DNA from: Muribaculaceae bacterium
GTDB taxonomy: Bacteria > Bacteroidota > Bacteroidia > Bacteroidales > Muribaculaceae
Length of the DNA stretch: 41,878 nucleotides
Assembly (NCBI GenBank): GCA_024400935.1
Contig: JAKSLZ010000019.1
Coordinates: forward strand, 1 to 41,878
Direction: 5' to 3'
Each line of letters starts with the position of its first letter. The first letter of the stretch is position 1. Under the pieces are notes generated by a model. The model made no database searches and was not told the DNA's origin. It saw only the letters and a program-made list of their open reading frames with translations. Position numbers and translations under genes: made by a program. Below, piece by piece: positions 900 through 8,745 of this stretch.

Positions 900-1469
900 C
901 TAATCAGAAACGGGCTGCTTGACAGCGACAATTGTCACGCCATGGGTCTTGCCGGCGATGTATCCGCATGGCTCGGCTGCTCCCGGCAGCATGAGATTGT
1001 CCACTATCATTGGGTGGCCGTTGGCAATGGTTGTGGCATTAAACGTTGCTCCTGCGATGAGCTTGCTGTTCTCGGTAGACAGTACTGTGAATAGATTGTC
1101 TCCGTCAAACCGCAGCGTGCATGTGCGGTTAGGGTGCCATTTGAGGATAATCGTGGTGCCGGGCGCAAGTTGCTTGGCATGTACAGCCTTGCCTATGAAG
1201 TCTGACGAGTTGCGTCCGTCCACAGCAGCACAAAAGGCGTTCCATCCCTCATAACCTACATATCGTGATAGAATCTCCCTTGTGGTCTCGGAAGGCACTG
1301 GTTGCCAGCTTACCTTGCCCCACAATCGCTTGATTGTGGACAAACTCAGAGAGTCGCCAGTAACCGACTTGATGTTGAGTAGCAGAGCATGAATGCTCGC
1401 CGGGGTGGTCACTTCGCGCCCCCAGCGTTGCTCAACGCGCTGTTTCAATATCTTTACATACTCTTCCAT
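900..1469 (-). CDS. hypothetical protein with helix-turn-helix-like N-terminus, partner of Ser/Thr kinase
   Basis: 189 residues starting at ATG 1469. The start overlaps the end of the upstream kinase gene by 16 bases, so the two are probably translationally coupled. Residues about 40-80 carry SLSTIKRLWG and later YVGYEGWNAFC. This arrangement is common at the N-termini of Bacteroidales proteins and looks like a small helical DNA- or protein-binding module. The rest (about 90-189) is predicted beta-rich, with LAPGTTIILKWHPNRTCTLRF and CGYIAGKTHGVTIVAVK. There is no signal peptide or membrane segment, so it is probably cytoplasmic. The coupling suggests it is a substrate or regulator of the kinase; this is inference. 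The gene is real on length, coupling and family-like motifs, but its function is unknown. Confidence 0.75.
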   Translation of the reverse strand: MEEYVKILKQRVEQRWGREVTTPASIHALLLNIKSVTGDSLSLSTIKRLWGKVSWQPVPSETTREILSRYVGYEGWNAFCAAVDGRNSSDFIGKAVHAKQLAPGTTIILKWHPNRTCTLRFDGDNLFTVLSTENSKLIAGATFNATTIANGHPMIVDNLMLPGAAEPCGYIAGKTHGVTIVAVKQPVSD

Positions 1470-2848
1470 TTTGACATGTCTTTTTTATACTCACCACTAT
1501 AAGAATAGCCTATGTAGAAACGTTTCATGACCACGGTCATCACCGAGTCAAACCGCTCGTCACCGGCTGGCAGGTCCTTCTGTAATTTGCTGCGTGTGGC
1601 AAAATAGGTGGAGCGCGCTATGTCGTGCAAGTCGTTCTTCACCTGCGGGTCGGCCAGCGTGTTGAGGCGCATCACTTCCATCTCACCATAATGCTCGGCA
1701 ATCTCCTGATTGGGACTTATGTCCTCGCCTTTGTCACGCTTTGCCTGGATAAACGACCTGATGTATTTAGCGGTCTCTTTCTTGTGATAGTCGTTGGCAT
1801 AGGCTTGCAGGTTCTTGATAATACTGTCATAGTCATACACCTTTTTCTCAGCCGGGGCATTGGCGGGAGTGGCTGGTGCGGGAGTTGCTTCTGCATCGGC
1901 TATCGGGGTAATGATATCGTCCTTGTCCTCGGGGTTGGGCAATGCACTGTCGGCTGGCGATGGGTGGACGGTAACGCTGTCACTGGTTACTTCTCTCGCA
2001 GTGGTGTCTTGACCGATGTGGGGATGGCTTGCATTATCGGGAAGGGGAGAAGTTGCAGGTGTGTTCGTCAACCAGTAGGCCCCCATAGCTGCAACAGTAA
2101 TCACAACAGTTGCAACCCCCATCCACCACCACTCAAAGCTGCGTTTATGCAGCATCGCGGCCACGTCGAGGGCGCTTTGCACCCTCTTGGCACGGTTCTC
2201 ACGCATGCATCGGGCCGCAACACGCCTCAGCTGGTTCTTGCCAGCTGAGCACTTGGCCATGTCTTCCAGTACAACTCCCAGTGAATAGATGTCGCACAGA
2301 GCATCGGTGATGCCCTCGTTTACACATTCTGGCGCAATGTAGTGCCTTGTGCCGGCGGGCATCTTGAGAGTGGCATAGTTGGATGAGTCGGCAAGTCCCA
2401 GGTCGATGAGCACTGCATGCCTGTGGTGCGGGTCCACGATAATGTTTTGCGGTTTCACGTCGCGATGTACCATCTGGTGTGAGTGCAGGTAATCCAGGGC
2501 CTGGCACACATCATCCACAATGCTAACGGCTTGCTTGTGGGTCAGGCGGTGGCCGGCAAGCACATGGTCAAGCGTCTCGCCGTCGATGTAGTCCATGACG
2601 ATGCATTGCCCCAGCTGGTCTACTTCTTCCATGGCAAGCATGCGCACCACATGGGTGTGTCTCACGCTGAATCCCAAGTTGAACTCCTTGAGCAGCAATG
2701 ACTCGTGCAGCGCACGGTTGTCACAATCAGGCTTGACGCTCTTGAGCACAAACCACTGGCCCATGCGCATGGCACGGTGCACCATATAGTAGCGCCCCTC
2801 GTGCAGCAAGGAGATGTGTGACCACTCCTGGCTGAACAAAGCCTCCAT
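1454..2848 (-). CDS. transmembrane Hanks-type serine/threonine protein kinase
   Basis: About 464 residues from ATG 2848. An in-frame GTG at 2887 would add 13 residues, but the promoter box at 2891-2898 puts the transcript start at or inside that GTG, so the ATG is preferred. The N-terminal kinase domain shows the lysine in FVLKSVKPD, the catalytic loop HRDVKPQN (H about 128) and DLG in place of DFG. IAPECV follows, with DIYSLGVVLEDM after it. One membrane helix at about 240-262 (WWWMGVATVVITVAAMG) follows. The outer part is a Pro/Ala/Thr-rich linker and a charged C-terminal domain with no PASTA repeats. It should phosphorylate Ser/Thr residues on cytoplasmic partners and may sense something outside the inner membrane. 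The downstream overlapping gene is its likely partner. The target is unknown. Confidence 0.88.
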   Translation of the reverse strand: MEALFSQEWSHISLLHEGRYYMVHRAMRMGQWFVLKSVKPDCDNRALHESLLLKEFNLGFSVRHTHVVRMLAMEEVDQLGQCIVMDYIDGETLDHVLAGHRLTHKQAVSIVDDVCQALDYLHSHQMVHRDVKPQNIIVDPHHRHAVLIDLGLADSSNYATLKMPAGTRHYIAPECVNEGITDALCDIYSLGVVLEDMAKCSAGKNQLRRVAARCMRENRAKRVQSALDVAAMLHKRSFEWWWMGVATVVITVAAMGAYWLTNTPATSPLPDNASHPHIGQDTTAREVTSDSVTVHPSPADSALPNPEDKDDIITPIADAEATPAPATPANAPAEKKVYDYDSIIKNLQAYANDYHKKETAKYIRSFIQAKRDKGEDISPNQEIAEHYGEMEVMRLNTLADPQVKNDLHDIARSTYFATRSKLQKDLPAGDERFDSVMTVVMKRFYIGYSYSGEYKKDMSKWKSM

Positions 2849-2890
2849 GCCGGTGTGCGACTTTAATATTTCTGAATCACTGTCCACGAT

Positions 2891-3007: not shown

Positions 3008-3077
3008 TAAATTTGCAATGTGATGTAAAATAGTTCGCACCACTGCTTGATAATGTGAAGAATTATTCCTAAATTTG
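3008..3077 (+). promoter_or_regulatory. two tandem -7 boxes ahead of the dynamin operon leader
   Basis: TAAATTTGCAA occurs twice, at 3008-3018 and 3070-3080; both match TAnnTTTG. They face the GTPase operon about 300 and 360 bases before its first ATG. No further match lies between the terminator-like hairpin ending at 3316 and the ATG at 3371. Transcription of the operon may therefore start here and pass through the structured leader. Confidence 0.5.
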
Positions 3078-3147
3078 CAAGGCAATGCCGCCGCAGTTGT
3101 GGCGTTGCACGACATTTGGAATAACAAAAGACAATGTTTCTTTTTGG

Positions 3148-3316
3148 GGCTTGATGAAACCGCCAAATCTTCAACCACAGTTCCCCGCCATAGAGAAGCA
3201 ATTGTCCGCATCTTTACATAAGTACAAGGGTGCGGACTTCTTGCATCACAGTGTGGGGAACAGGCGCTTGGCGGTGCCCATCAAGCCACACAGCAAGAAG
3301 CCGCACCCTTTTTTTT
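3148..3316 (+). promoter_or_regulatory. structured leader with terminator and competing long hairpin
   Basis: Two folds share one strand. Fold A is a long nested hairpin with four paired blocks: 3148-3156 with 3279-3287, 3159-3164 with 3270-3275, 3180-3186 with 3255-3261, and 3204-3210 with 3231-3237, all perfect complements. Fold B is an intrinsic terminator: 3228-3244 pairs with 3293-3308 (16 pairs, one bulge), followed by eight Ts at 3309-3316. The segment 3231-3237 (TGCGGAC) is needed by both, so the folds exclude each other. This is the architecture of an attenuator. An independent small RNA ending at 3316 is the alternative. A smaller hairpin lies upstream at about 3080-3107. Confidence 0.55.
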
Positions 3317-3370
3317 GTGTGTACCCTCTTGCCCCGAGTAACAAAACATAAATCTACCAAAATACAAACT

Positions 3371-5527
3371 ATGGAAGATTACGAAAAGATTATAGAAGAA
3401 TTTAATTCATATATTGATAACAATTGCTTTTCAGATGCTGAAAAGATATTGAATCGTTGGTATGATGTCAACGGGAAATCAAAAGATTTTTATTACTATC
3501 TTAATATTGCATTGATGTATGGAGATTGGATATACAATTACGTCTCAAATAAAGATATAGACTACGGTACATTGGTCAGGAATTTTGGAGAATCTATTTC
3601 AGAAGCAAAAAAGAGAATATCAAAAGATCTGCCAGATGAGGACGTTGAAATTTGGCAAGAGCGATTGAAAGAATTAGGGGAAGTACACAAAGCAATTATT
3701 AAGGCTTTGAGAGATACTACAACTCATCATGATATATCCTCCATGGAGAGTGTTAACGGTAAAGGACAGGAAAGCAGTAATCGAAATGGCTCAACCAAGA
3801 GTAACATAGAGGACCGATATCATGAGTTGATCTCTATATTAGAAAAAACACGTGATAAAATTGGTTCATACAGTTCAAAACATAAGAACATTTCTAAATT
3901 ACAAAAGGAAATGTTTACAGCGGTTGATAACGAAATTGTGTCAATTGAGAAGGAAATTGATAATGCTCTGAACTGTATTTCATGGGAAAATCTTGTCATC
4001 GCCTTCTTTGGAGAAACGAATGCTGGGAAAAGCACTATTATTGAAACGTTTCGTATTTTGTTTGAACAGAATAGGACGGGAGGTCAAGATGGTCTTATCG
4101 TGGGAGATGGTCGCCAAGACTTTACCAAGGATTACCATGAATACAGTATGTCAATAAGTGGTAAAACGTTTACCCTCATTGATGTTCCTGGAATTGAAGG
4201 TAATGAAGATGAATTTCTTGATGTGATAAAGGAAGCTTTGCACAAAGCACACTGTGTGTTTTATGTTCAAGGACACAACAAAAAGCCCGATAGTGCTACA
4301 GCGCAAAAAATCAAGAAATATCTGGGGGATTGGGTTAATGTATATTCTATTTACAATGTTCGAGGTTCGGTTACAGACTATGACGAAGAAGATGAACGTG
4401 AGACATTGCTAACTGACAGTGTGTTGAAAAACGAAAAGCTCATTAAAGAAACATTCCGTGATATTTTAGGTAACGTGTATAAAGGGCACATTACCTTACA
4501 GGCCTTATTGGCTATGTGTGCAAAAGCAAGTTTTTCACATAAACGAGATGACCTTCAGCGAAATCAAAACAAGTTGTTAGGATTTTTTGGAAACGCCGAA
4601 GAGGTTTTGTGTTTCAGTCAATTTAGTTCCATTAGACAGTTAGTCGAAGAAAAGGCATCAAATTTTACAGATGAAATTACTGAGGCAAACAAGCAAAAGA
4701 TGACATCATTGGCACTGCGTTCGGTAAAGAGATTAGAAGATGTCATTTCCAGCGATGACATTGACATTTCTGTTATAGAGCAAAAGCTAAAACAATTCAA
4801 GCGCGACATACAACAAATAACAGGTAACTGCGTGACAAACATCAAACACAAGGTTCCAAATTGTATTTATCATAATTTCTCAATACTAAAAGGTGATTTG
4901 AATTCTTATGTTGACAAAGGTGTTGATGTCTTGAAAAACAAAGGTCACTTAAGAATAGCACGATCAAGAGCCGACACAAATCAATCTATAAAAGAAATAA
5001 TTCATGCTGAATTAATAAATGCACAAAAAAAAATTGAAAACAAAAAAAAGGAATTATCCTCAATTAGGTTCAGTTCGAATTTCGCTTTTGACATTGATGT
5101 TGAAATGAATGTAAATTTAGATGATGCATTAGATGATTTGGATTTAAATCTTGATAAAATCGGAGATTTATGTTTATCTGCAGCTTCTGGAGCTGGAATA
5201 GGATCTTTTTTTGGCCCAATTGGAGCAGGAATTGGAGCTGTTATTGGGGCTGGGGCTCATCTTTTATTTAGTGATGGCGGGAAATCTGAGGCTAAAAAAA
5301 ATATTGCAGAAAGCATAGAAGAAGCAGAAAAAAAAGCCACAGCACAAGTTAACGGTTGCTTAATAAGTATAAATCAGATTATTTATGATGAACAACGAAG
5401 ATTAATGAAAGAAGTTGAAAAGGAAATAAATAATCTGAACGCATTGTCCGATTCATCACTTGTGTTGAAAAAAGACATCAAGAACTATATAAACATAATA
5501 AAACGTAACGCTTATGGTACAGTTTGA
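3371..5527 (+). CDS. dynamin-like GTPase, LeoBC type (Eleos-like defence)
   Basis: 718 residues from ATG 3371; a longer frame back to 3230 runs through the leader hairpin and is rejected. Residues about 1-120 are helical and repeat-like. The GTPase domain has a G1 loop GETNAGKST at about 214 and G3 DVPG at about 271. At the expected G4 place, near 329, the sequence is NVRGS instead of N/TKxD. Long helical stretches follow. At about 604-640 there is a glycine-zipper hydrophobic segment (GAGIGSFFGPIGAGIGAVIG), which probably inserts into membrane. Its end overlaps the LeoA-like gene by 14 bases. LeoB/LeoC and LeoA are bacterial dynamins, and the LeoBC-LeoA pair is described as the Eleos anti-phage system. 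The region is A/T-rich, consistent with horizontal transfer. The exact subfamily is less certain than the GTPase call. Confidence 0.82.
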   Translation: MEDYEKIIEEFNSYIDNNCFSDAEKILNRWYDVNGKSKDFYYYLNIALMYGDWIYNYVSNKDIDYGTLVRNFGESISEAKKRISKDLPDEDVEIWQERLKELGEVHKAIIKALRDTTTHHDISSMESVNGKGQESSNRNGSTKSNIEDRYHELISILEKTRDKIGSYSSKHKNISKLQKEMFTAVDNEIVSIEKEIDNALNCISWENLVIAFFGETNAGKSTIIETFRILFEQNRTGGQDGLIVGDGRQDFTKDYHEYSMSISGKTFTLIDVPGIEGNEDEFLDVIKEALHKAHCVFYVQGHNKKPDSATAQKIKKYLGDWVNVYSIYNVRGSVTDYDEEDERETLLTDSVLKNEKLIKETFRDILGNVYKGHITLQALLAMCAKASFSHKRDDLQRNQNKLLGFFGNAEEVLCFSQFSSIRQLVEEKASNFTDEITEANKQKMTSLALRSVKRLEDVISSDDIDISVIEQKLKQFKRDIQQITGNCVTNIKHKVPNCIYHNFSILKGDLNSYVDKGVDVLKNKGHLRIARSRADTNQSIKEIIHAELINAQKKIENKKKELSSIRFSSNFAFDIDVEMNVNLDDALDDLDLNLDKIGDLCLSAASGAGIGSFFGPIGAGIGAVIGAGAHLLFSDGGKSEAKKNIAESIEEAEKKATAQVNGCLISINQIIYDEQRRLMKEVEKEINNLNALSDSSLVLKKDIKNYINIIKRNAYGTV

Positions 5528-7202
5528 TATTTTTAAAAAAGCAAATAAGAAATTTGTCTTATTTGAAAAATTAGTAAAAGAAGGCACTGCTTGCGGTCTA
5601 GACTTACGCAACATACTTGAAAAGATAAATAACGTTAAGCAAATGATAGCTGACGATATCGTTCGCATCGTTCTTCTTGGCAGTTTTTCGGACGGAAAGA
5701 CAAGTGCTATAGCGGGTTTGCTTGGTAGACTTGAGGATTCTATGAAAATTGACCAAGACGAATCTTCCGATGAATTAAAAATTTATCGTCCTGCTGGTTT
5801 GAAAGAAGGTTTTGAAATAGTTGATACTCCGGGACTTTTTGGTACGAAAGAAAAGGAAGTTGCTGGGAACAATGTCAAGTATTCAGATATTACAAAGAAG
5901 TATCTTTCCGAAGCACATATAGTTATATATGTTTGTGATGCAGTTAATCCCTTGAAGGATAGTCATATTCCTGTAATAAAATGGATTATGCGAGATCTAG
6001 GTAAACTTAATTCGACTATTTTTGTTGTTAACAAGATGGATGAAGCTGGGTATGATCTCTTAGATGATTATGACTATAGTCGTGGTAACGAGATTAAACG
6101 CAATGCTCTGATAACTCGACTACGTAGTGCAATCAATCTTACTCCTGATGAAGAAAAGTCGCTGCGAGTTGTGTGCATAGCGGCAGATCCTAAAGGAAAA
6201 GGGCTCACACATTGGTTCAACAAACCTGATGACTATATTCGACGCTCCCATATTGACCTTTTGCGAAATAATCTAACTGACATAGTTGAAAATAGTGATG
6301 CCACGACATTAGAAGTTGCGGCTGTTGAAGCCTCTATCAAAGACATGTTGATCAACGTAGGGGACCAAATAGAGGATGTAACTGTTTCTGCCGAAAAGGC
6401 ATTAAAAAAGGTTGACGAATCGTGCAAGGACCTATCTCTTGATTTAACTCAATTGAGGTCTGAGTTGTCACTTAACCGCAGTGAAATGGAAAAAAGCCTG
6501 GACCAATATAGAGCAGATTTGTTAAGTGATATAAAGAATGCTTCGGTTGAAACCATAAGTGAAGTGATAGATAGAACACTAGGCGTTCAAGATGGTAAAG
6601 TCTCATTCTATGTCACCTGTAATAATATTGACCGTATCATTTCTTCTTGTGCAGAATCTAACAACACATCGATTCAATCAAGTATGGTTAATTTTGAACG
6701 TGAGTTTGATGCTCAAAATCAAATTCTTTCCAACTCACTGAAAGAAGGTGCAAAGCTGCTAAAGAACGTTACGGTATCGGGGGAGCAAGTAAAAGCCGTA
6801 CGTGATGTGATTGCTAAAAGTTACAAATTTAAACCCTGGGGTGCAATAAAACTTGGCAGTAAAATCACAAAAGGGCTTGGGGTATTAGCTACTGGTATAA
6901 GCATCGGAATTGAAGTCTATTCATGGTACAAAAAATACCAAGACAACAAGAAATTAGATGAGATAAAAGAATCACTCTTGAAAGCTCTAGACGATATTTT
7001 TGCTAAAGTATACGAAACAATAAAAGGTAATGCGTATTATACTAATTTTGCTCCATCATTTATCGAGATGCAAAAACAATTAGACGAACGTAACCTTGAA
7101 GTGGAGAAAATGCGGAAACAAATTTACGAACTAGAGGCGTTTAAATCAAAAATTGACCAATGGAAGTTGGGCGAATATGCAGATTTTGAAGTGATTGATT
7201 AG
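5514..7202 (+). CDS. leoA: LeoA-family dynamin-like GTPase (Eleos-like defence)
   Basis: 562 residues, starting inside the end of the preceding GTPase gene. It has a full G domain: G1 GSFSDGKT at 56-63, G3 DTPGLFG at 104-110 and G4 NKMD at 173-176. The spacing and wording around these (MKIDQDESSD, SEAHIVIYVCDAVNP, KPWGAIK) agree with what I recall of LeoA from enterotoxigenic E. coli and the HP0731 group. A helical stalk follows, then a hydrophobic segment at about 441-470 that may touch membrane. A C-terminal coiled coil lies at about 510-550. LeoA was linked to toxin/vesicle release in E. coli. The two-gene Leo arrangement is also described as phage defence, probably acting on membranes after infection. 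The overlap implies a two-protein complex. Confidence 0.88.
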   Translation: MVQFDIFKKANKKFVLFEKLVKEGTACGLDLRNILEKINNVKQMIADDIVRIVLLGSFSDGKTSAIAGLLGRLEDSMKIDQDESSDELKIYRPAGLKEGFEIVDTPGLFGTKEKEVAGNNVKYSDITKKYLSEAHIVIYVCDAVNPLKDSHIPVIKWIMRDLGKLNSTIFVVNKMDEAGYDLLDDYDYSRGNEIKRNALITRLRSAINLTPDEEKSLRVVCIAADPKGKGLTHWFNKPDDYIRRSHIDLLRNNLTDIVENSDATTLEVAAVEASIKDMLINVGDQIEDVTVSAEKALKKVDESCKDLSLDLTQLRSELSLNRSEMEKSLDQYRADLLSDIKNASVETISEVIDRTLGVQDGKVSFYVTCNNIDRIISSCAESNNTSIQSSMVNFEREFDAQNQILSNSLKEGAKLLKNVTVSGEQVKAVRDVIAKSYKFKPWGAIKLGSKITKGLGVLATGISIGIEVYSWYKKYQDNKKLDEIKESLLKALDDIFAKVYETIKGNAYYTNFAPSFIEMQKQLDERNLEVEKMRKQIYELEAFKSKIDQWKLGEYADFEVID

Positions 7203-7226
7203 TTTAATTTTTAATAATAATTATTT

Positions 7227-7349
7227 ATGAGCGACAACAAGAAAAAAAAGGGACATACCAAAAGTGGCCTTGTTAAAATCGGAACAGCAATTTTGACAGT
7301 TGCGGGTATATTAATTGGTTTGGGTAACGGTAAAGGTAAAAACACATAG
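7227..7349 (+). CDS. 40-residue single-span membrane peptide downstream of leoA
   Basis: A short frame starting 24 bases after the leoA stop, on the same strand and in the same A/T-rich composition. The N-terminus is strongly basic (DNKKKKGHTK). One hydrophobic stretch follows (LVKIGTAILTVAGILIGLG), then a short Gly/Lys tail (NGKGKNT) and a TAG stop. The layout is that of a tiny membrane peptide with its basic end in the cytoplasm. Position and spacing suggest it belongs to the GTPase operon. It has no recognised family. It could be an effector, an anchor for the GTPases, or a toxin-like peptide; none of these is shown by the sequence. Short length means it could be a chance frame, but the clean membrane-peptide pattern makes that less likely. 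Confidence 0.55.
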   Translation: MSDNKKKKGHTKSGLVKIGTAILTVAGILIGLGNGKGKNT

Positions 7350-7609
7350 TTATTTATCATTACGTGAGAGTTTGAGACATAATAATGTACTTGATTTCGA
7401 AAAAGACAATATAAATATACGTGTATAGGGGCATAGATATTGAGATTCCATGGCTATAGTGTGAATCTTGCATTTTGATTGAAATGTGGGGCCAGTTGAG
7501 GTTGTATCTGTGATCTCAAAGCCTTGACATTTAATGGACTGTCCATATCTTTCACTAGCATCTCAGTATTATGTGTTACCCAATTATGTAATTAAACAAC
7601 AATTGTATT

Positions 7610-7948
7610 ATGGATAAAATTGTAGATAAAATTGTAGGGATGGGTGTCCCTGGTTTGATGTTTATTGTAGCGATGTCAATGACAGGACTATCGGGTGCGG
7701 CTGCAATCACAGCAGCTTTGGCTTTACTTGGTCCTGGAGGTATGATTGGAGGCGTGATAACTTTATTAGCAGCAGGAGCAATATCGTCTGCTTTGTCAGA
7801 ATATGGTTTTGACGCAATATTTAGAGCAGTAATTAGAAAATTGTATGCGAAAGGGGAATCAAAGCAAACAATAAAGGATAAAATAAACAAAGGGCCTTGG
7901 TCTAGCAAGTTAAAAGCAAAGGCTATTGCTGATTTAAATTCACTTTAA
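7610..7948 (+). CDS. hydrophobic Gly/Ala-rich small protein, possible accessory of the GTPase system
   Basis: 112 residues from ATG 7610. After a short N-terminus, residues about 12-65 form one or two hydrophobic glycine- and alanine-rich helices (MSMTGLSGAAAITAALALLG, then GPGGMIGGVITLLAAGAISS). An amphipathic basic C-terminus follows (RKLYAKGESKQTIKDKINKG). There is no signal peptide. The make-up resembles pore-forming or bacteriocin-like helices and also the glycine-zipper segment of the first GTPase. About 260 bases separate it from the 40-residue peptide. In 7350-7609 I see no gene, no clear TAnnTTTG box and no strong hairpin, so co-transcription is possible but unproven. The composition matches the GTPase genes rather than the next gene. 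No family recognised. Confidence 0.7.
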   Translation: MDKIVDKIVGMGVPGLMFIVAMSMTGLSGAAAITAALALLGPGGMIGGVITLLAAGAISSALSEYGFDAIFRAVIRKLYAKGESKQTIKDKINKGPWSSKLKAKAIADLNSL

Positions 7949-8013: not shown

Positions 8014-8529
8014 ATGGATGCAAGGTTGACGGCTGCGGAGCAGCTGGAAATTGTGCGTAGGACTGGGTGGTCGATGGAGGTGGTGAGGTTTATCCGCAAC
8101 ATGGATGAGGCTCGCATCTATATGGGGGCAGGGCTGGTGGAGGCTCGCATTGGCGGGCGCACGGCTTTGATACGCCGAGACATTGACTGGAGCGCTTTTA
8201 ACTGCCGCCACGAGTGGCTGAAGAGGAAGTTTGCCGACTGGACCCAGTGGTGGGACTACAACAATGCCGACCTGATAGGAGAGGGGTGGCCGCCGCGTGA
8301 CAGCAATGGCGACCCCTACGAGCTGCACCACATCGGGCAGCAGCAGGATTCGCCGTTTGCCGAGCTCACGTGGCAGGAACACATGGGCGACGGCAACAAC
8401 CGCATTCTGCACCCTCAGCGCGAGTCGGCCATCGACCGTCAGTGCTTTGACGCTGAGAAGAATGCCTACTGGCAGGCGCGTTTCAAGGCATTCACGCCTA
8501 GTGAACTGAGAAAGATCTATGGTAAGTAA
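8014..8529 (+). CDS. orphan LHH (HNH/Endo VII-type) nuclease domain protein
   Basis: 171 residues from ATG 8014. The C-terminal half carries ELHHIGQ (L104-H105-H106) followed by DSPFAELTWQEH, GNNRILHP and the ending FDAEKNAYWQARFKAF. This is the signature of the LHH branch of the HNH/Endonuclease VII nucleases, usually the toxic tip of Rhs, CDI or other polymorphic toxins. The N-terminal part (TGWSMEVVRFIRNMDEARIY, AGLVEARIGGR, RRDIDW) is the lead-in normally seen just before the LHH domain in such toxins. Here the domain stands alone, without delivery or pretoxin parts and without a signal peptide. It is G/C-richer than the GTPase block before it, so it probably arrived separately. It likely cuts DNA in the cytoplasm. 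Confidence 0.8.
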   Translation: MDARLTAAEQLEIVRRTGWSMEVVRFIRNMDEARIYMGAGLVEARIGGRTALIRRDIDWSAFNCRHEWLKRKFADWTQWWDYNNADLIGEGWPPRDSNGDPYELHHIGQQQDSPFAELTWQEHMGDGNNRILHPQRESAIDRQCFDAEKNAYWQARFKAFTPSELRKIYGK

Positions 8530-8544
8530 AACGCGGTTAGTATT

Positions 8545-8745
8545 ATGTTGAGAGGATACAGGACATTCACGTGTCCCAAGTGCGGGCACAAGTTTGTGGG
8601 GCCTGATATGGAACTTAGGGCTACTGTTGACACTATGCCGCTCTCTTGCCCCAAGTGCGGGCACGAGAAGTGCATGCCGTCGACATCAATTGTTGATGCA
8701 ATTAAGGACTGTTTTAAGGTGGGTTCTATTAAATCTGGGATGTAG
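8545..8745 (+). CDS. small zinc-ribbon protein, 3' end supplied by a MITE
   Basis: 66 residues, starting 15 bases after the nuclease stop. Two CPKCGH motifs (in TFTCPKCGHKF and LSCPKCGHEK) about 25 residues apart make a four-cysteine zinc ribbon of the kind found in small nucleic-acid-binding or adaptor proteins. The last ten or so codons, including the TAG stop, lie inside the left terminal repeat of the MITE at 8716-8901. The original C-terminus may therefore have been lost or replaced. Tight spacing suggests co-transcription with the nuclease. A role as immunity or regulatory partner is a guess. Confidence 0.65.
   Translation: MLRGYRTFTCPKCGHKFVGPDMELRATVDTMPLSCPKCGHEKCMPSTSIVDAIKDCFKVGSIKSGM

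What the first reader, a model, noticed from the sequence alone, without database searches (positions are those of the whole stretch)
3371..7948. LeoBC/LeoA dynamin pair (Eleos-type) with two additional small membrane genes
Seen: two overlapping GTPase genes with P-loops, a glycine zipper in the first, a coiled coil in the second, then a 40-residue single-span peptide and a 112-residue Gly/Ala-rich hydrophobic protein, all in a block of low G+C. Known: the LeoBC-LeoA pair is described as the Eleos anti-phage system. Inference: the two small proteins may be effector or membrane-targeting parts, making a four-gene variant that I do not know to be described.
Basis: partly seen in the sequence, partly recalled or inferred. 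Interest (0 to 1): 0.75.

Follow-up and report, generated by a model that had tools for sequence, protein, structure and literature searches.

The report
Bacterial dynamin operon with membrane micropeptide
A gut bacterium carries a known pair of dynamin-like proteins thought to fight viruses, followed by a tiny membrane peptide that turns up again beside some related pairs and looks like an overlooked third part, while the fourth gene proposed is probably an unrelated passenger.

Summary
LeoBC (3371-5527) and LeoA (5514-7202) are a genuine Eleos-type dynamin pair. The idea that both small genes belong to the system is half right.

The 40-residue, lysine-rich, single-span peptide (7227-7349) recurs directly after LeoA in 6 of 22 LeoA loci (6 of 20 readable); 1 of 340 control genes has such a neighbour. 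Carriers lie in two parts of the LeoA tree, all Bacteroidales. It is best read as an overlooked micro-protein part of a Bacteroidales Eleos subtype.

The 5 measurable carriers have a 19-residue GTPase-domain loop; the 10 measurable non-carriers have 21-229, and some relatives hold a membrane segment there. The most likely job is a membrane anchor supplied by a separate gene. This is inferred, and five Prevotella loci have neither anchor nor peptide.

The 112-residue protein (7610-7948) was not found in the other 21 LeoA loci. Its homologues lie in prophage-like tail operons and a LeoA-free locus, so it is probably a passenger.

Two leads remain: HNH-type nuclease genes follow LeoA in some loci, and a structured leader RNA precedes LeoBC. 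No activity was tested.

The parts
3047..3077 (+). Bacteroidetes-type promoter-like site, TTG-N20-TAAATTTG
   Evidence: read from sequence; the consensus TTG / TAnnTTTG is recalled, not from a call
3083..3318 (+). structured leader RNA (long imperfect hairpin), ending in a strong terminator-like hairpin (about 3226-3310) and a run of T; the 5' end is inferred from the promoter-like site
   Evidence: window 3075-3330 MFE -96.2, z -5.18, 0 of 200 shuffles as low; terminator domain -47.7 kcal/mol; no Rfam match reaching a gathering score; single copy in own genome, which is 77% complete. Role unknown.
3371..5527 (+). LeoBC dynamin-like GTPase, 718 aa; residues about 1-143 are an N-terminal extension that L015 shares; 19-residue P-loop-to-switch loop; Gly-rich paddle
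   Evidence: PADLOC LeoBC 2.6e-95 over residues 144-692; tblastn to L015 over residues 2-718; alignment A5; loop lengths
5514..7202 (+). LeoA dynamin-like GTPase, 562 aa
   Evidence: NF041922 486 bits over cut-off 325; PADLOC LeoA 5.4e-149; PDB 4aur LeoA 5.9e-94
7227..7349 (+). Lys-rich single-span micro-protein, 40 aa, 24 nt after LeoA; proposed third part
   Evidence: such a frame follows LeoA in 6 of 22 LeoA loci; 56% identical to the L014 peptide in alignment A4
7610..7948 (+). 112-aa Gly/Ala-rich hydrophobic protein; probably a passenger, not part of the system
   Evidence: not found in the other 21 LeoA loci; homologues in tail operons of viral-collection contigs and in one LeoA-free locus
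8014..8529 (+). LHH-type HNH/ENDO VII nuclease, 171 aa; neighbour, membership undecided
   Evidence: PF14411 64.1 bits over cut-off 23.3; G+C 0.585 against 0.368 for LeoA
8545..8745 (+). zinc-ribbon-like protein, 66 aa, near the LHH gene here, in L015 and in L089
   Evidence: zinc-ribbon Pfam hits all under their cut-offs among the 25 shown

Best explanation
The locus is a Bacteroidales subtype of the Eleos (LeoBC/LeoA) dynamin system with a third, overlooked part: a 36-46 residue, Lys-rich, single-span micro-protein encoded right behind LeoA. SHOWN by sequence: the dynamin pair, and the recurrence and position of the micro-protein frame. INFERRED from the families: LeoBC and LeoA hetero-oligomerise on the inner membrane and act there on infection-related membrane damage or invasion. 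INFERRED here: the micro-protein sits in the inner membrane with its basic N-tail in the cytoplasm and tethers or recruits the dynamin pair. It would thereby do in trans what a hydrophobic insert in the LeoBC/LeoC GTPase domain does in cis in other lineages. The 112-aa protein at 7610-7948 is a separate mobile passenger.
For: Pair. Micro-protein: same strand, 12-89 nt after LeoA, in the window and in L014, L015, L016, L026 and L027. That is 6 of 20 readable LeoA loci against 1 of 340 control genes, Fisher p 9e-8; in the same loci all 6 passing frames follow LeoA and none another gene. Carriers lie in two places of the LeoA tree. The frame is kept between the window and L014, with a one-codon gap near its start. 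Anchor idea: the loop is 19 residues in 5 of 5 measurable carriers and 21-229 in 10 of 10 measurable unsplit non-carriers. L017, close kin without the peptide, has a hydrophobic insert in that loop. Split LeoC proteins of L029 and L031 carry a transmembrane segment there, as described for ETEC LeoC (PMC4159319, section read).
Against: The charge and hydropathy thresholds were chosen after seeing the peptides. Loosening them to net charge 2 and hydropathy 1.0 gives 10 of 110 against 16 of 340. A single origin of the carriers is not ruled out by the tree, and the loop correlation follows the tree and rests on few independent events. Five Prevotella loci (L019-L022, L024) have neither insert nor peptide, and L030 has a 21-residue loop and no peptide, so an anchor of this kind is not always needed. 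L032 and L033 have long inserts but no stretch that passes the hydropathy threshold there. Codon evidence for selection on the 40-aa frame is weak: 9 synonymous and 16 non-synonymous codon changes of 36 codons. No structure could be predicted and no activity was tested.
Confidence: 0.5

Rival explanations
1. The micro-protein is the effector: a small membrane-depolarising toxin held in check or placed by the dynamin pair and released on infection (abortive infection).
For: Short, very basic, one hydrophobic span, last gene of the core; sequence drifts fast while composition is kept, as in many small membrane toxins (recalled).
Against: The peptide matched no family in PADLOC, Pfam, NCBIfam or PHROGs at the limits used, though such short proteins are easily missed; no antitoxin gene was seen, but none was searched for specifically. 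The dynamins are the conserved part and the Prevotella loci do without the peptide.
Confidence: 0.2
2. The system is a plain two-gene Eleos; the small frames after LeoA are neutral by-products or translational spacers kept by chance in a few related loci.
For: 16 of 22 LeoA loci show no such peptide, two of these being unreadable; carriers need only two changes on the tree; codon evidence is weak.
Against: 6 of 20 against 1 of 340 control genes; persistence beside LeoA proteins only 36-72% identical to the window's.
Confidence: 0.17
3. Four-gene system as first proposed, with the 112-aa protein as a true component.
For: Same strand, same low G+C block; its Gly-rich stretch gives a weak hit to the LeoBC and PDC-M09A models (E 0.031 and 0.0015), best explained by composition.
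Against: Not found in the other 21 LeoA loci, including L014 with 72% identical LeoA; homologues between tail and tape-measure-like genes in three viral-collection contigs (L085-L087), in a further such contig (L013/L084), and in a locus of a genome without a LeoA match; a 260-nt gap lies before it.
Confidence: 0.05
4. The pair serves vesicle release or membrane repair rather than anti-phage defence, as first proposed for LeoABC of enterotoxigenic E. coli.
For: PMC4159319 (abstract, one results section and discussion read) reports reduced vesicle release on loss of leoA or leoB.
Against: Rare and patchy distribution (3 of 397 genomes of the family; 1 of 295 in the order sample), low-G+C island and presence on 8 plasmid records fit a mobile accessory system. 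No phage test here.
Confidence: 0.08

Closest known systems
Eleos anti-phage system (LeoBC + LeoA; PADLOC LeoA/LeoBC models)
   Same: Both defining genes, in the same order and overlapping
   Different: A Lys-rich single-span micro-protein follows LeoA; compact LeoBC without the GTPase-domain insert; N-terminal extension of about 143 aa on LeoBC. I saw no description of a third gene in what I read or saw listed. The paper that named Eleos is recalled, not read.
LeoA, LeoB and LeoC of enterotoxigenic E. coli (PMC4159319)
   Same: LeoA relative of PDB 4aur (5.9e-94); tandem dynamin genes
   Different: LeoB and LeoC are one unsplit protein here and no LeoC-type membrane anchor is seen; the ETEC proteins themselves were not aligned
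DynA of Bacillus subtilis (PMC8844932, seen in a search listing with the start of its abstract only)
   Same: Bacterial dynamin linked to phage resistance
   Different: Two dynamins fused in one chain (PMC4159319 discussion); not compared by sequence here
Orphan LHH/WHH nucleases of Bacteroidales
   Same: LHH gene at 8014-8529
   Different: In the other family genomes whose loci were read (6 loci, L089-L091 and L093-L095) no LeoA gene was seen within the roughly 3 kb held

Membership tests
Eleos (LeoBC/LeoA) | LeoA dynamin-like GTPase | tested here: met
   NF041922 486 bits over 325; PADLOC 5.4e-149; 4aur 5.9e-94
Eleos (LeoBC/LeoA) | LeoBC dynamin-like GTPase next to LeoA | tested here: met
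   PADLOC LeoBC 2.6e-95; frames overlap by 14 nt
Eleos (LeoBC/LeoA) | Intact GTPase motifs in both proteins | tested here: met
   P-loop GETNAGKS and DVPGIEG in LeoBC; GSFSDGKT and DTPGLFG in LeoA
Eleos (LeoBC/LeoA) | Protection against phage | not testable with these tools
   needs plating
Eleos (LeoBC/LeoA) | Membrane anchor in the GTPase-domain insert (seen in LeoC of the split form) | tested here: not met
   19-residue loop, no hydrophobic segment over the threshold; this is a feature of the split form, not a condition of the PADLOC models as matched here
Bacteroidales Eleos subtype with micro-protein (proposed here) | Lys-rich single-span peptide of 36-46 aa directly after LeoA | tested here: met
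   window and 5 other loci
Phage tail-operon protein family (112 aa) | Homologues in phage structural operons | tested here: met
   L085-L087 lie between tail-like genes and a tape-measure-like gene; 53-54% identity to P0004 in A6. The tail and tape-measure names are my reading of the neighbouring frames, not a family search; PHROGs gave no match for the window's protein.

The most novel reading that the evidence does not exclude
Bacteroidales Eleos is a modular immune operon: a compact dynamin pair, a detached transmembrane anchor micro-protein, and an exchangeable HNH-type nuclease effector behind it (LHH in the window, WHH in L026 and probably L027, a related family in L018 and L025), expressed through a structured leader RNA that can form a terminator before LeoBC.
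Probability: 0.12. Interest if true: 0.75.

Novelty: new variant of a known kind. Interest (0 to 1): 0.5.

Why it matters
How the paired bacterial dynamins reach the membrane and stop phage is open. LeoA alone bound neither lipid nor nucleotide in the published work (PMC4159319 discussion). A micro-protein that supplies the membrane contact would give a testable missing factor and might explain failed reconstitution. Defence-system models that look only for LeoA and LeoBC would not report such small genes.

Tried and rejected
112-aa protein as a component: rejected on distribution. tblastn in plasmids and phages gave no match, and PHROGs gave none for it. Of its 6 genome hits only the window and L005/L010 are convincing. 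L006 falls inside an unrelated, apparently enzymatic, frame of about 1000 aa; L008 was not read but has a similar 1003-aa frame; L007 and L009 have stops inside and were not followed up.

Link of the 112-aa gene to the kinase/HTH-like pair at 900-2887: in L010 homologues of all three lie close together. But the 900-1469 family has 4 matches in the own genome, so this was not pursued.

LHH nuclease as an original part of the low-G+C block: not accepted, because its G+C is 0.585 against 0.368 for LeoA.

Rfam for the leader: nothing reached a gathering score in the window stretch or in L018. Sequence alignment of the three leaders showed no convincing similarity. The promoter scan was at chance level (20 found, 18.0 expected); terminator-like sites were 5 against 2.6 expected, and the large leader hairpin is beyond that scan's loop limit. 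Repeat search showed nothing that bears on the question.

More LeoA loci: the class and order samples gave only the window; the larger family sample gave no new one; the family of G1071 gave only two loci already held; the phages collection gave none. Structure prediction could not be run.

A Fisher value for loop length used 8 non-carriers chosen by hand; I do not rely on it. The full count is 5 of 5 against 10 of 10.

Full report
OBSERVATION. Reading frames, starts and overlaps are as reported. LeoBC starts at ATG 3371. The frame is open further upstream, but this ATG gives a protein that aligns over residues 2-718 with L015. LeoA overlaps it by 14 nt. The block is A+T-rich (G+C 0.345-0.386) in a window of 0.486. 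The window lies in a Muribaculaceae genome. This is inferred: G104 and G243, of its own family, have contigs of the same lengths as two records titled Muribaculaceae.

IDENTITY. LeoA: NF041922 486 bits (cut-off 325), PADLOC 5.4e-149, PDB 4aur 5.9e-94. LeoBC: PADLOC 2.6e-95 over residues 144-692. Residues 1-143 are an extension that L015 shares and most others lack; L025 has an extension of its own. LeoA is rare: 3 of 397 genomes of the family, 1 of 295 of the order sample and 1 of 395 of the class sample, the window's own genome being counted in each; 2 of 201 in the family of G1071, both already held. One scan of a collection of 84,980 species genomes gave 17 loci with strict patterns, so more distant or divergent LeoA genes were missed. 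This patchiness fits a mobile accessory system.

THE 40-RESIDUE PEPTIDE. I examined 22 LeoA loci: the window, 17 (L014-L030), one viral contig (L031) and three plasmids of the 8 found (L032-L034). A Lys-rich single-span frame of 36-46 aa starts 12-89 nt after the LeoA stop on the same strand in 6 of 22: window, L014, L015, L016, L026, L027 (the plasmids were scanned only). In L018 the stretch is N, and in L028 the contig ends 145 nt after the stop, so 6 of 20 are readable positives. L023 is counted as negative although its LeoA match carries a stop and no LeoBC was found beside it.

Control: 340 genes of at least 300 codons in 40 stretches (800 kb) of two Bacteroidales genomes. 54 have some 30-60 aa ATG frame starting -10 to +100 nt after the stop, and 1 of 340 passes the same charge and hydropathy test. 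In the window and LeoA loci 110 genes were tested and all 6 passing frames follow LeoA. Fisher for 6 of 20 against 1 of 340: p = 9e-8; it treats related loci as independent. The thresholds were set after seeing the peptides. With looser ones the contrast falls: 6 of 110 against 2 of 340, 7 against 6, 10 against 16.

In the LeoA tree the carriers are in two groups, {window, L014, L015, L016} at 83/82 (not starred) and {L026, L027} at 99/98 (starred). Two changes of the label suffice, and one origin is not ruled out. Window against L014: the peptides align with one codon gap near the start, and similarity falls off after the stop. Codon changes are 9 synonymous and 16 not, of 36 codons, which is weak evidence for selection.

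WHY AN ANCHOR. The paper on ETEC LeoABC describes a hydrophobic segment at the C-terminus of LeoC, which holds the first part of the GTPase domain, as a predicted membrane anchor, and reports that LeoA alone bound neither nucleotide nor lipid (PMC4159319: abstract, one results section and the discussion read). In my set the split LeoC proteins of L029 and L031 have a transmembrane segment there. L017, whose LeoA is 52% identical to the window's and which lacks the peptide, has a 41-residue loop with a hydrophobic stretch. Unsplit L032 and L033 have inserts of 129 and 229 residues with short aromatic amphipathic-looking stretches, but none above my hydropathy threshold. All 5 measurable carriers have 19 residues; L026 is not measurable because of N. 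The 10 measurable unsplit non-carriers have 21 (L030), 26 (L025), 27 (L019-L022, L024), 41, 129 and 229. L034 was not measured by the script because its P-loop differs; its printed sequence shows a long insert. L018 and L028 have 27 and are unreadable behind LeoA.

Against: five Prevotella loci have neither, so an anchor is either dispensable or lies elsewhere, for example in the Gly-rich paddle; and the pattern follows the tree. I put the anchor reading at about one half, a toxin effector at 0.2, and no function at 0.17.

THE 112-RESIDUE PROTEIN. tblastn finds no match in the other 21 LeoA loci within the flanks fetched. Homologues: L010, 59%, Muribaculaceae, in a genome with no LeoA match at 1e-20; L013/L084, 52%, a viral-collection contig; L085-L087, 53-54%, between tail-like genes and a tape-measure-like gene, followed by a 117-aa frame. 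Tail and tape-measure are my reading of the frames. It looks like a phage cargo gene, perhaps for superinfection exclusion (inference). Its weak hits to PDC-M09A and LeoBC models are best explained by its Gly/Ala-rich make-up.

NEIGHBOURS THAT MAY MATTER. HNH/ENDO VII-type genes lie on the same strand within 1.5 kb behind LeoA in the window (LHH, 64.1 bits, cut-off 23.3) and in L026 (WHH, 33.4 bits, cut-off 25.1, found on the same gene in L012). L027 is below the cut-off (21.7 bits). L018 and L025 have a further family with no Pfam hit whose profile aligns to these WHH proteins (hhalign probability 46.8%, E 2e-4). That is 2 firm, 1 borderline and 2 tentative of 16 Bacteroidales LeoA loci. The count is not systematic: downstream proteins of only L012/L026, L011/L025, L014, L015, L018 and L027 were put to Pfam, and the rest were compared only with these queries by tblastn. 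L015 has an LHH gene about 3 kb away on the other strand, and L014 has an unrelated hydrolase-like gene under the cut-offs. In the family, LHH occurs in 5 of 99 genomes (the window's own included) and WHH in 3 of 99, so the neighbourhood is unusual, although such genes may gather in variable islands in any case. G+C argues for separate arrival in the window (0.585 against 0.368), in L026 (0.523 against 0.41) and in L025 (0.547 against 0.378), less in L018 (0.431 against 0.375), not in L027 (0.358 against 0.357).

LEADER RNA. Window 3075-3330 folds at -96.2 kcal/mol, z -5.18. Its 3' part forms a strong hairpin followed by a run of T, just before LeoBC, and no convincing gene lies upstream on that strand. 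L018 (z -5.99) and L015 (z -5.21) also have a long imperfect hairpin followed by a T-run before LeoBC, without convincing sequence similarity. In the sliding scan 6 of 15 LeoBC loci reach z -4 or lower in some window (window, L015, L018, L019, L024, L025) against 6 of 194 control upstream windows. Up to 11 windows were tried per LeoBC locus and only one per control, so this is suggestive only. L014, the closest relative, has no such structure (best z -1.0).

LITERATURE. Searches. Passages on Eleos were read in PMC11811056 and PMC10482375. None of what I saw mentions a third gene. Most subscription papers are not held, so this does not show that it is unpublished.

VERDICT. A true Eleos pair of a Bacteroidales type; one of the two small genes is a likely new part, the other a likely passenger.

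Noticed in passing
window 3075-3330; L018 3905-4125; L015 3150-3420: Strongly structured leader RNAs followed by a T-run before LeoBC (z -5.2, -6.0, -5.2), different in sequence; possible attenuator or non-coding RNA.
   Followed up: partly
window 8014-8529; L026 7800-8483; L027 4499-5197; L018 7842-8282; L025 8884-9393: HNH/ENDO VII-type or related nuclease-like genes of different families behind LeoA in several Bacteroidales loci; LHH and WHH are rare elsewhere in the family.
   Followed up: partly
L018 7842-8282; L025 7864-9393: A protein family with a WAEECN-like motif and no Pfam match, two relatives in a row behind LeoA in L025, one of them frame-broken.
   Followed up: partly
window 8014-8745; L015 9872-11196; L089 1009-1974: An LHH nuclease gene and a small zinc-ribbon-like gene lie near each other in all three.
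   Followed up: no
L085-L087 6001-6731: Homologue of the 112-aa protein plus a 117-aa partner frame between tail-like genes and a tape-measure-like gene of viral-collection contigs.
   Followed up: partly
L010 7725-10580; window 900-2887: A 112-aa homologue lies next to a kinase gene and an HTH-like gene related to the pair divergent from LeoBC in the window; the latter family has 4 matches in the own genome.
   Followed up: partly
L025 3668-3784; L028 3881-4165: Other small genes just upstream of LeoBC where no peptide was seen behind LeoA (L025) or that stretch is unreadable (L028): a 38-aa charged peptide and a 94-aa glycine-rich protein.
   Followed up: no
L030 10604-12903: Further weak LeoBC matches (E 1e-6 and 0.03) downstream of the LeoBC-LeoA pair in Centipeda.
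   Followed up: no
L034 1-2568: PP2C phosphatase and InaA-family kinase genes directly upstream of LeoBC on a Raoultella plasmid, while the window has a Ser/Thr kinase divergent from LeoBC.
   Followed up: no
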